DNA from: Conexibacter woesei Iso977N
Lineage (GTDB): Bacteria > Actinomycetota > Thermoleophilia > Solirubrobacterales > Solirubrobacteraceae
DNA length: 64,000 bases
Assembly (NCBI RefSeq): GCF_000424625.1
Contig: NZ_AUKG01000001.1
Span: 868,001-932,000, forward strand
Direction of reading: 5' to 3'
A program made the position numbers and the translations under genes. The notes beneath the pieces were generated by a model. The model saw only the letters and a list, made by a program, of their open reading frames with translations, was not told the origin of the DNA and made no database searches. Positions 11,888-56,436 of this stretch are shown here, in pieces. How positions within the stretch are numbered: the stretch's first letter is position 1; every line of letters begins with the position of its first letter.

Positions 11888-12682
11888 ATGAGGAGGAGCC
11901 TGCTGGGCCGGGGTGGCGCGTGCGCGGCCGCCGTGCTGCTGTGCTGCGGCGTGGTTGCCAGCGGCGCAGGCGCGAAGAGCACGCGGTGGACGTTCAGCGG
12001 TGTCGTGACCGGGTCGTATGCGAACGCCGTCACTGCGGCGGGCAACGCGCAGTGTGCGGCGAGCTACAGCGAGCGGGTGGTGGGTGTGAGGGTCGTGGTC
12101 CGGTCGAGGGTGCCGTTGGTGTACGACCCCGCCACGCATGGGCTGTCCGGCAGGCTTGTCTATTCCGTGCGTGGGAGGTGGACGGTCAGTGGCGCCTACA
12201 CGCCGCTGGTGGCGCAGCCGGATGGGACGCTCGTGTGCGGAACGGCGCAGGTGCCGGTCAGCTGCAGCGCGAGGGTCGTCTTCGAGGATGGGCACCGGAC
12301 GTCGACGTCCGGAAGTGCGCGGTTGGCGGTTGGTGGGACGGCGAGGGGGACGGTCGTCTCGAAGGTCGTCGCGCCGCGGTTGACGGAGCAGTACGCAGAT
12401 GCGGGTAGGCCGCCGGCGGGGTGGCCGGGCGCGTGCGTGCTCGCGCCGGATGACGAGACGATCCCGGCGGCGCCGGTGTTCGGGTTGTCGGCCACGACGG
12501 TGCTGGATCGGGCGGTCGCGGCGCCGCTGATGCTGCCGACGGCGAAGCTCCGCGGCCACCGAGCCTTCACGGTCCTGGCGCAGGTCGAGCGGCCGGCGTT
12601 CTGCCCGTCGGCGGCCTTCGATCCGTGCTCTGAGCAGGGTTCCTTCCGGCTGCGAGTTACGCTAACACCCTCACATCGTTGA
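11888..12682 (+). CDS. Secreted cysteine-containing protein of unknown function
   Basis: A 264-residue protein. The signal peptide (CAAAVLLCCGVVASGAGA) is followed by a beta-rich mature part with six cysteines (NAQC, LVC, VSC, GAC, AFC, DPC contexts), enough for three disulfides. No known domain is recognised. Arginine is coded by AGG or AGA far more often than in cytoplasmic neighbours. It is followed by a long gene-free region with strong hairpins. Confidence 0.75.
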   Translation: MRRSLLGRGGACAAAVLLCCGVVASGAGAKSTRWTFSGVVTGSYANAVTAAGNAQCAASYSERVVGVRVVVRSRVPLVYDPATHGLSGRLVYSVRGRWTVSGAYTPLVAQPDGTLVCGTAQVPVSCSARVVFEDGHRTSTSGSARLAVGGTARGTVVSKVVAPRLTEQYADAGRPPAGWPGACVLAPDDETIPAAPVFGLSATTVLDRAVAAPLMLPTAKLRGHRAFTVLAQVERPAFCPSAAFDPCSEQGSFRLRVTLTPSHR

Positions 12683-12866
12683 GCAATGCCAAGTGTCAGC
12701 GGGAGGGGGGTTGACTCAGCACCGCCTGCGTGCGTGACGTCCGATTGCCGGTTTGGCAGGGCATGGCTTGCGCTAGAGAGCCACCAGTGTGTACCGTCGT
12801 GTTCATAAGGGATCCAGCGAACGCGACGGGCGGTGATCACGGTCACGGCGCGAAAGTGGATCCGGT

Positions 12867-13246
12867 GATGCTCTCAACCAGCGGAAGGTGAGCATCTGAT
12901 AGTGGCCCGGGTTCGATGGATCGGGTCGCGTTGGTCCCGGCGGCCCACACGCGGAAGGGCCGTCGGGACGAGGCTTGGCTCATCTGAGCGCGATGAGCGA
13001 GGAGCGGAGCTCGACGACCTGAGAAGGTCGTCGGGCCCTGCGCTGCCACCGCACGGGGTCCCCGAGCGGTTGGCGCGACCGGTCCAACGGTGCGCGGCAA
13101 GCGGAAGCCGCGCACCTGGGCCCCGGCGCGAGCGGCGGTGCGGACGGTCACCCGCACCGCCGCTGGCGCAGAGCGTCCGGAATCGCGCGCGGGGGCGCGA
13201 TTGCGGGGACTGGCCCAGTGCCGCGAGCCGCGGGGTCGGCTTCGCG
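12867..13246 (+). ncRNA. Candidate structured noncoding RNA
   Basis: The stretch 12,683-13,304 has no convincing gene but a row of strong hairpins. Seen: 12867-12896 (GATGCTC/GAGCATC with an inner ACC/GGT), 12934-12969 (13 pairs, one G-U), 12978-12998 (GCTCATC/GATGAGC), 13013-13032 (8 pairs closed by a GAGA loop), 13089-13116 (10 perfect pairs), 13131-13164 (13 perfect pairs), 13181-13202 (8 perfect pairs) and 13222-13246. Three of the loops (12881, 12951, 13101) carry the same GCGGAA directly before the 3' arm. Purine-rich loops, including a GNRA one, favour the plus strand. A TTGACT at 12711 could be a -35 box, but no good -10 was found. It may be a free RNA or a long leader of the STAS gene. 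RNase P RNA and tmRNA signatures were not found. Confidence 0.45.
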
Positions 13247-13304
13247 TCCGGTTGATGCCTAGGCAGGCTTGAGAGAGCGGTTTCCTGGGCAACTAACCGG
13301 GGCC

Positions 13305-13655
13305 ATGAAGCAGCCGCCGGCCGTCACGATCATCACGGGGGAGTTGGATCTCCAGGCATCGCGCACCCTCGGGCAGCGTTTGAGCGAGGAGGTGGGCGCT
13401 GGGATCACGTCGCCGGATGTGATCCTGGACCTGTCGGCGGTGTCGTTCATCGACTCCAGCGCGCTGGGTGTGATCGTCCAGGCGGATCAGCGGCTCGGGC
13501 GCCAGGGGCGGGGGCTTGCGGTGATCGCTCCGAAGGGGACGGTCGTCGCCGACCTCGTGCAGATCACCCACATCGACAAGTCGCTGCGCGTCGCCGAGAC
13601 GCGCCAGGAGGCCGAAGCCGCGCTCGCCCCGGAGGACGAACAAGCCGCGTCGTGA
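13305..13655 (+). CDS. STAS-domain protein (anti-sigma factor antagonist type)
   Basis: A 116-residue single-domain protein of the SpoIIAA/RsbV type. ITGELDLQASRTLGQRL is the first strand-helix, and LDLSAVSFIDSSALGVIVQA holds the DSS motif whose serine is phosphorylated by a partner anti-sigma kinase. In its unphosphorylated state such a protein frees a sigma factor by binding the anti-sigma factor. ATG 13305 begins the fold; an upstream TTG at 13269 would add 12 residues. No kinase or sigma gene is nearby, so the partner is elsewhere. The hairpin-rich region directly upstream could be its leader. Confidence 0.9.
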   Translation: MKQPPAVTIITGELDLQASRTLGQRLSEEVGAGITSPDVILDLSAVSFIDSSALGVIVQADQRLGRQGRGLAVIAPKGTVVADLVQITHIDKSLRVAETRQEAEAALAPEDEQAAS

Positions 13656-55124: not shown

Positions 55125-56324
55125 ATGTACAAGAAGGTGCTGGGCCTCGTGCTCGGCGCGCTGCTCACGGCCGGTCTGGCGACCGGTTGCGGGAGCAGCA
55201 GCGACAACTCAGGTGGCGGCGGCGGAGGTGGCGGCGGGAGCAAGGGCTCCATCAAGGTCGCCGGCCTGTTCACGCTGACGCCGCAGGCGTTCGGCAACGA
55301 CGCCGTCAAGATGGCCAGGCAGGTCTTCGACGACCAGAACGCCGCGGGTGGCATCGGCGGCCGCAAGATCGAGTACCTGAGCGGCGACGACACCGCCAAC
55401 CCGACGCAGGCCGCGCAGCTCGCGCGCAAGTTCGTCGGCCAGGGCGCGGTCGCGATGGTCGGCACGGTGTCGTTCGTCGACTGCGGGACCAACCACGGGT
55501 ACTACGAGAAGCAGGGCATCGCCTCGATCGTGGGGATCGGCGCCGACCCGTTCTGCTTCACGACGCCGAACGTGGTCCCGGTGAACATCGGCCCGTTCAC
55601 GTCGGTGACCGCGGACCTCTACTACGCGACGAAGTTCCTCGACGACAAGAAGATCTGCATCTTCCTGGCGCCGACGCCCGGCTCCAAGGACGCGCAGGAC
55701 GCGGCGGTGGACCGCTGGACGAAGCTGACCGGCCAGAAGCCGGTCGTGATGGACGACAGCCTGCCGCTGACCGAGTCGAACTTCACGCCGTACCTGCTGC
55801 GGGCCAAGAACGCGGGCTGCGACGCGATCTTCCGCAACGGCTCCGACACGACCGGCCTGTCGATCCTGAAGGCGGCCAGGAACCAGGGGATGCAGGACGT
55901 CGACTTCCTGTTCGACGCCTCGTCCTACACGGCGCAGCTAGCGAAGTCGGCCTCGCCGCTGGGCATGAGGGTGTACCTGGCGTCCGAGTTCGAGCCGTAC
56001 ACCGAGACCCAGGGCGCCAACGCCGACTGGATCGCCACCGCGGAGAGGGGCAGGATCAACGAGACCGCCTTCACGCAGGGCGCCTACGTGTCGGCCAAGT
56101 GGCTGATCGAGGTGCTGAGGTCGATCAAGGGCGACATCACGCGCCAGTCGGTCCTCGCCGCGATGAAGGCGGGCAAGCCCTACAACAACCCGATGGTGGG
56201 CTCACCGCTGGTCATGGGCGATGCCAAGGCGCACGCCCCCAACCAGGCGATCAAGATGGTGTCCATCAAGAACGGCAACTGGGAGGTGGAGAACAAGGAG
56301 TTCTTCACCCTGCCGCAGGGCTAG
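55125..56324 (+). CDS. ABC importer substrate-binding lipoprotein (LivK type), importer 2
   Basis: A 399-residue lipoprotein. The signal peptide ends in GLATGC; a linker with a run of glycines follows, then a type I periplasmic-binding fold (GSIKVAGLFTLTPQAFGND, QNAAGGIGGRKIEYLSGDD). ATG 55125 is preferred; GTG 55122 and 55116 are in frame and closer to the ribosome site. Its last helix segments (EVLRSIKGDITRQSVL) mirror those of importer 1 (DVLRSIRGDITRDSVY). Arginines are often AGG. A strong hairpin follows before the permease gene. Confidence 0.9.
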   Translation: MYKKVLGLVLGALLTAGLATGCGSSSDNSGGGGGGGGGSKGSIKVAGLFTLTPQAFGNDAVKMARQVFDDQNAAGGIGGRKIEYLSGDDTANPTQAAQLARKFVGQGAVAMVGTVSFVDCGTNHGYYEKQGIASIVGIGADPFCFTTPNVVPVNIGPFTSVTADLYYATKFLDDKKICIFLAPTPGSKDAQDAAVDRWTKLTGQKPVVMDDSLPLTESNFTPYLLRAKNAGCDAIFRNGSDTTGLSILKAARNQGMQDVDFLFDASSYTAQLAKSASPLGMRVYLASEFEPYTETQGANADWIATAERGRINETAFTQGAYVSAKWLIEVLRSIKGDITRQSVLAAMKAGKPYNNPMVGSPLVMGDAKAHAPNQAIKMVSIKNGNWEVENKEFFTLPQG

Positions 56325-56361
56325 GCGACCGGACTCGCCTGACCTGCTCCCGGCAACACAC

Positions 56362-56391
56362 GGGGCGCCGCCGCTCGGGCGGCGGCGCCCC
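56362..56391 (+). terminator. Strong hairpin between the binding-protein and LivH genes (attenuator or partial terminator)
   Basis: GGGGCGCCGCCGC (56362-56374) and GCGGCGGCGCCCC (56379-56391) form 13 perfect G-C pairs around a TCGG loop, 37 bases after the binding-protein stop. No long T-run follows. In ABC operons such a hairpin often lowers expression of the permease relative to the abundant binding protein or protects the upstream message. Confidence 0.65.
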
Positions 56392-56436
56392 CTTCGCCGG
56401 CTCGTTGACCGACTCACGTTGAAGGGACGTCCCTGA

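What the first reader, a model, noticed from the sequence alone, without database searches (positions are those of the whole stretch)
12867..13246. Row of eight hairpins in a gene-free region: possible new structured RNA
Perfect or nearly perfect stems of 13, 13, 10, 8, 8 and 7 pairs follow each other in about 380 bases, one with a GAGA tetraloop, and three loops share GCGGAA just before the 3' arm. No protein-like frame exists on either strand. The repeated loop motif is hard to explain by base composition alone. Known RNase P and tmRNA core sequences were not found.
Basis: partly seen in the sequence, partly recalled or inferred. Interest (0 to 1): 0.65.

Follow-up and report, generated by a model that had tools for sequence, protein, structure and literature searches.

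The report
Structured RNA gene with repeated loops
Next to a small stress-regulator-type (STAS) gene of a soil actinobacterium lies a probable gene for a roughly 440-base folded RNA, never catalogued and so far seen in only two related species, that shows the same short loop sequence (GCGGAA) several times, as if to catch a protein.

Summary
Window 12867-13246 (+) is a row of ten predicted hairpins, and it is the most strongly folding stretch sampled in the window. A 5' domain (12804-12866) and a promoter-like block (12731-12803) extend it to an RNA gene of about 440 nt. GCGGAA occurs in three hairpin loops (Poisson P about 1.4e-4).

A sister species (G001) carries the element at the same place, upstream of the orthologous STAS gene. 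Promoter block, 5' stem, H1, H2, H3 and H5 recur. Five pairs change on both sides, others change to or from G-U, and one of 86 cells is broken. G-U use assigns the fold to the + strand. Two loops keep GCGGAAG. The 3' third (H6-H10) is not shared. No Rfam family matches, and no other relative was found in the class genomes searched. A third species has the STAS gene and its promoter-like motif without the RNA, so it is probably a separate RNA gene, not a STAS leader.

RNase P and tmRNA lie elsewhere. CsrA is present, but the loops lack the CsrA motif; the flagellin leader has it. My best guess is a lineage-specific RNA presenting GCGGAA loops to a protein, as CsrB does. Structure is well supported; transcription and function are untested.

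The parts
12731..12803 (+). conserved upstream block: inverted repeat TTGCC-N5-GGCA (12745-12760), -35-like TTGCGC (12768-12773), 18-nt spacer ending TGTG, -10-like TACCGT (12792-12797); predicted promoter and operator
   Evidence: 75% identical to G001, against 46-49% upstream of it; hexamers read from the sequence; the generic promoter scan did not flag it
12804..12866 (+). predicted RNA 5' end and P1 domain; closing stem GGATCC 12810-12815 with GGATCC 12858-12863, inner CGCG/CGCG stem
   Evidence: G001 has GAATCC...GGATTC at the same place, one both-side change
12867..12896 (+). hairpin H1, loop with GCGGAAG
   Evidence: conserved in G001 with 3 both-side changes
12902..12929 (+). hairpin H2, loop with UCGAUGG conserved
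   Evidence: conserved in G001, 1 both-side and 3 one-side changes, all pairs kept
12934..12969 (+). hairpin H3 (13 pairs), loop ACACGCGGAA
   Evidence: conserved in G001, 1 both-side and 1 one-side change
12979..12997 (+). hairpin H4, absent from G001
   Evidence: fold; insertion relative to G001
13004..13041 (+). hairpin H5 with GAGA tetraloop
   Evidence: CGACCTGAGAAGGTCGTCGGG core identical in G001; 2 one-side changes, 1 broken cell in the stem
13046..13073 (+). hairpin H6, window species only
   Evidence: fold
13089..13116 (+). hairpin H7 (10 pairs), loop AAGCGGAA, third copy of the loop motif; window species only
   Evidence: fold and motif scans
13126..13169 (+). hairpin H8 (13 plus 4 pairs), window species only
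13179..13204 (+). hairpin H9, window species only
13222..13246 (+). last hairpin H10, possible 3' end (no U run)
   Evidence: fold; no terminator with U-run found
13266..13291 (+). predicted own promoter of the STAS gene, GGCTT-N16-GGGCA
   Evidence: same spacing and letters in G001 and in G005, which lacks the RNA
13305..13655 (+). STAS-domain protein gene (context, not part of the RNA)
   Evidence: Pfam STAS 1e-15; orthologs in G001 83% and G005 78%

Best explanation
12804 to about 13246 (+) is a separately transcribed, non-coding, highly structured RNA gene of about 440 nt (about 275 nt in the sister species). It is a row of stable hairpins driven by its own conserved promoter with an upstream operator-like inverted repeat. 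Inferred mechanism: the repeated GCGGAA(G) loops (H1, H3, and H7 in this species) are identical binding sites for one RNA-binding protein, and the other stems, one with a GNRA cap, hold the fold and protect it from decay. When the promoter is induced, the RNA would bind several copies of that protein and take it away from other targets, the way CsrB/RsmZ RNAs work but with a different recognition sequence. Shown: structure and strand by comparison with one sister species, repeated motif, absence from Rfam. Inferred: transcription, ends, protein partner, titration. My confidence is about 0.85 for a real structured RNA on this strand, 0.7 for an independent RNA gene rather than a leader, and 0.3 for the protein-binding role.
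For: Folding z -8.8 and the most extreme of the pieces sampled in the window. Homologous element in G001 at the same site, pieces at E 1.4e-14 and 2e-12. 43 pairs compared: 5 both-side changes, 6 one-side changes, 1 broken cell; structures slid by 1-3 columns pair only 33-49% and give no both-side change. Strand: 85 of 86 cells pair on +, 77 of 86 on -. Loop motif GCGGAA three times in 443 nt, expected 0.1, and at the same place in H1 and H3 of G001. A model of the GCGGAA hairpin puts its best two hits in G000 and the best two in G001 inside this element; the better hits elsewhere that I read look like coding sequence. Conserved promoter block at 75% identity below poorly conserved flank. STAS gene keeps its own upstream motif in G005 without the RNA.
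Against: No transcript data. Only two species carry it, so covariation rests on one comparison (16 of 500 shuffles reach it), and the alignment was trimmed and adjusted by hand. The 3' third, including the third GCGGAA hairpin, is not shared. No partner protein is identified, and the repeated loop could serve tertiary contacts inside the RNA instead. G001's own fold is less extreme (z -4.4 on +, -4.8 on -).
Confidence: 0.42

Rival explanations
1. Cis-acting structured 5' leader of the STAS gene (riboswitch-like or processed leader) that controls its expression.
For: The RNA ends about 60 nt before the STAS start codon, same strand, and the pairing with the STAS gene is kept in G001.
Against: A GGCTT-N16-GGGCA element just before the STAS start is kept in three species, one of them (G005) without the RNA. 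The RNA has its own conserved promoter-like block. No terminator of the U-run type was found between them, and no fold sequestering the STAS start was tested for specifically.
Confidence: 0.2
2. CsrA-sequestering RNA of the CsrB/RsmZ type; the genome has two CsrA proteins and FliW.
For: CsrA in 39 of 41 relatives, two copies in G000; fliW-csrA-flagellin cluster; many GGA triplets, some in hairpin loops.
Against: CsrA sites have A-rich context before GGA (RUACARGGAUGU, PMC7652899; (C/A)A(A/T)GGA in C. jejuni, PMC4894983). Here the loops read GCGGAA, only about 3 of 12 GGAs have an A one or two bases before, and those are not kept in G001. The flagellin leader of the same genome has a classical-looking ACAAAGGAUGU hairpin, also kept in G001. 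GGA is only mildly enriched (12 found, 7.6 expected from the window rate). Stems here are very stable, which SELEX disfavoured (PMC7652899).
Confidence: 0.1
3. RNA-polymerase-binding RNA standing in for 6S/Ms1; Rfam's 6S model finds nothing in these genomes.
For: No 6S match in five genomes of the genus; Ms1 shows that actinobacteria have divergent replacements (PMC9130861).
Against: Found in only 2 of 7 genomes of the genus, whereas a 6S-like RNA should be widespread within a clade. The fold is a row of hairpins, not a rod with a central bubble. Gene context differs from Ms1.
Confidence: 0.05
4. DNA-level element (cruciform, decayed mobile element or recombination site), not an RNA.
For: Strong inverted repeats; patchy presence; 3' third differs between species; minus strand also folds well.
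Against: G-U pairs are kept on the + strand (85 of 86) and would be mismatches on the other strand (77 of 86). Loop sequences are conserved as well as stems. Single copy in both genomes; no exact match of the H5 core in the viral or genome collections.
Confidence: 0.1

Closest known systems
CsrB/CsrC and RsmX/Y/Z RNAs
   Same: Several hairpins in one RNA showing the same short purine-rich loop sequence; separate regulated promoter; similar size (CsrB about 370 nt, own knowledge)
   Different: Loop reads GCGGAA, not A(N)GGA; stems much longer; a phylum in which my literature searches found no such RNA; partner unknown
Ms1 and 6S RNA
   Same: Structured intergenic RNAs of bacteria; actinobacterial Ms1 also escapes simple sequence search (PMC9130861)
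   Different: No long rod with central bulge; no shared gene context; present in two species only
Orphan structured RNA motifs from comparative genomics (for example TwoAYGGAY, Collinsella-1; PMC2864571)
   Same: Conserved hairpins without known function, not clearly cis-regulatory; TwoAYGGAY is named for a conserved loop sequence
   Different: No Rfam family matches here; known only from two genomes

Membership tests
Any Rfam 15 family | covariance-model match at or above gathering score | tested here: not met
   0 matches in 64 kb; best sub-threshold hits are miRNA models, 23.9 bits against 56 needed; none at gathering level in the G001 locus
RNase P RNA | this locus is the genome's RNase P gene | tested here: not met
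   found elsewhere, G000:C2:709411, 194 bits
tmRNA | this locus is the genome's tmRNA gene | tested here: not met
   found elsewhere, G000:C2:366755, 162 bits
CsrB/RsmZ CsrA-sequestering RNA | CsrA in the genome | tested here: met
   two CsrA genes over cut-off
CsrB/RsmZ CsrA-sequestering RNA | multiple A(N)GGA motifs in hairpin loops, conserved | tested here: not met
   loops read GCGGAA; few A(N)GGA and none kept in place in G001
CsrB/RsmZ CsrA-sequestering RNA | binds CsrA | not testable with these tools
   needs a binding assay
6S RNA | RF00013 match | tested here: not met
   no match in G000 or four sister genomes at E up to 1
Ms1 RNA | binds core RNA polymerase | not testable with these tools
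   needs pull-down
STAS-gene leader (cis-regulatory RNA) | co-transcribed with the gene downstream | tested here: inconclusive
   separate conserved promoter-like elements for both; G005 has STAS without the RNA; no transcript data
Conserved structured non-coding RNA (general) | base pairs kept through compensatory change in a relative | tested here: met
   5 both-side changes, 98.8% of cells paired; one relative only

The most novel reading that the evidence does not exclude
A new family of protein-titrating RNA in Actinomycetota that uses GCGGAA loops as its recognition code, revealing an unknown RNA-binding regulator (or a CsrA paralog with changed specificity).
Probability: 0.15. Interest if true: 0.75.

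Novelty: new variant of a known kind. Interest (0 to 1): 0.48.

Why it matters
Regulatory RNAs of the Thermoleophilia look almost unexplored: my literature search for Solirubrobacter and noncoding RNA gave nothing on the topic, and no 6S match exists in these genomes. A 440-nt RNA with a defined promoter-like block, covarying stems and a repeated loop motif gives a concrete bait for finding an RNA-binding protein in this group. If it titrates a protein, it would extend the CsrB principle to another phylum with another code.

Tried and rejected
Coding frame (no Pfam match, frame-breaking indels). RNase P, tmRNA, tRNA and 6S. CsrA sponge (motif context wrong and not conserved). Homologs in other genera: DNA search in 101 genomes, a 151-position covariance model in 232 genomes of the order and 399 of the class, and exact patterns in genome and viral collections gave only G001; the weak hit in G035 (28 bits) has mispaired stems and a missing hairpin and is most likely chance. 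A small hairpin model (R2) to find the same loop hairpin elsewhere in seven genomes: outside this RNA the better hits that I looked at appear to be coding sequence, for example a Lys/Ala repeat protein in G002. STAS homologs in more distant genomes: in the sequences I read out no comparable element was evident near the gene (by eye). A sigma-54 promoter reading of the upstream block was dropped because the spacing is 3 nt too long. Whole-genome download was not available. A first shuffle scan timed out and was rerun smaller.

Full report
WHAT IS THERE. The stretch 12867-13246 lies between an open frame for a possible secreted protein (11888-12682, no Pfam match) and a STAS-domain gene (13305-13655). 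Folded hairpin by hairpin it contains ten stems. The whole folds 46 kcal/mol better than dinucleotide shuffles on the + strand (z -8.8) and less strikingly on the - strand (z -6.2). Among 160 pieces of 400 nt sampled across the window, the piece starting at 12801 is the most extreme on both strands. GCGGAA occurs 13 times on + and 15 on - in the whole window, three of them in this 443-nt element, all in hairpin loops.

A RELATIVE. A DNA search of 101 related genomes found one strong match, in a one-contig genome of the same genus (G001), immediately upstream of the STAS ortholog, 83% identical in protein. Identity is 75% in the block 12731-12803, 54% in the 5' domain, 58% over H1-H3, 82% in H5, 10% over H6-H10, 67% before STAS and 85% in the STAS codons. 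Upstream gene order differs. G001 lacks H4 and has only a short GC-rich stretch in place of H6-H10.

STRUCTURE TEST. On an alignment of the core (H1, H2, H3, H5), trimmed by a few loop and linker bases and without the H4 insertion, 85 of 86 cells form standard pairs. Five pairs change on both sides and six on one side. Sliding the partners by one to three columns drops pairing to 33-49% with no both-side change; 16 of 500 shuffles reach the observed covariation, which is about what two sequences allow. Full natural sequences align to the resulting model without a flagged broken pair, though the model was built from them. The 5' stem adds GGATCC/GGATCC against GAATCC/GGATTC. The same pairs read on the opposite strand give 77 of 86, because the kept G-U pairs become C-A. 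This is direct sequence evidence for an RNA on the + strand.

EXTENT AND TRANSCRIPTION UNIT (inference). The conserved block 12731-12803 holds an inverted repeat TTGCC-N5-GGCA, TTGCGC, an 18-base spacer ending TGTG, and TACCGT (TACCTT in G001). Transcription would then start near 12804 in both species, just before the 5' stem. There is no U-run terminator; H10 at 13222-13246 is the likely 3' border. Between it and STAS, GGCTT-N16-GGGCA is kept in G000, G001 and G005 with identical spacing. G005 has the STAS gene directly after the phosphoribosyltransferase gene and no RNA between them. The simplest reading is a separate RNA gene placed before a gene that has its own promoter.

DISTRIBUTION. 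A covariance model of the core finds only G000 and G001 convincingly among 232 genomes of the order and 399 of the class, sets that overlap. The strict filters of those scans lose weak matches, so diverged copies may exist. Exact-pattern scans of the genome and viral collections were empty. The element is therefore either young or fast-evolving.

WHAT IT MAY DO. The GCGGAA hairpin seems special to this RNA: a small model of it, run on seven genomes, places its best two hits in G000 and its best two in G001 inside the element, and the better outside hits that I read appear to lie in coding sequence. Repetition of one loop in one RNA, kept in a sister species at two positions, fits repeated sites for one protein. 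CsrB-type RNAs are the known example, and these bacteria do have CsrA (39 of 41 relatives) next to fliW and flagellin. But the test fails on sequence: CsrA sites have A-rich context before GGA (PMC7652899, PMC4894983), the flagellin leader here has that (GGACAAAGGAUGUCC), and the loops here do not, nor are the few A(N)GGA sites conserved. I therefore hold 'works like a titrating RNA' as the best guess at low confidence and 'is a CsrB-type RNA' as not met. The alternative that GGAA, closed by C-G, acts as a GNRA-type tetraloop in tertiary contacts within the RNA cannot be excluded.

VERDICT. Real structured RNA on the + strand: about 0.85. Independent RNA gene: about 0.7. Protein-binding titrator: about 0.3. 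New to Rfam and, as far as the papers searched go, to the literature. Solid as a candidate family, unproven as a function.

Noticed in passing
L106 8362-10061 (G000:C1) and the same cluster in L108 (G001): fliW-csrA-flagellin cluster; the flagellin leader carries a conserved GGACA-AAGGA-UGUCC hairpin overlapping the start codon, a classical-looking CsrA site in an actinobacterium.
   Followed up: partly
G000:C3:434903 and G000:C1:530411: Two CsrA genes per genome in most members of the genus; the one outside the flagellar cluster scores higher and nearly equally (about 89.8 bits) in all of them.
   Followed up: partly
five genomes of the genus (G000, G001, G002, G005, G006): No 6S RNA match with the Rfam model, so this group may have a diverged or different RNA-polymerase-binding RNA.
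   Followed up: no
window 13266-13304: GGCTT-N16-GGGCA before the STAS gene in three species; resembles stress-sigma-factor promoters (from memory), which would give a nearly leaderless mRNA.
   Followed up: partly
window 11888-12682: 264-aa possible secreted protein without Pfam match; a stretch of its 3' end (GCCTTCGATCCGTG) has a counterpart upstream of the RNA in G001, where no equivalent gene was seen.
   Followed up: no
window 56355-56395: Strong GC-rich hairpin between a gene that looks like a transporter substrate-binding protein and the next gene; the 400-nt piece at 56001 is second in the fold scan.
   Followed up: no
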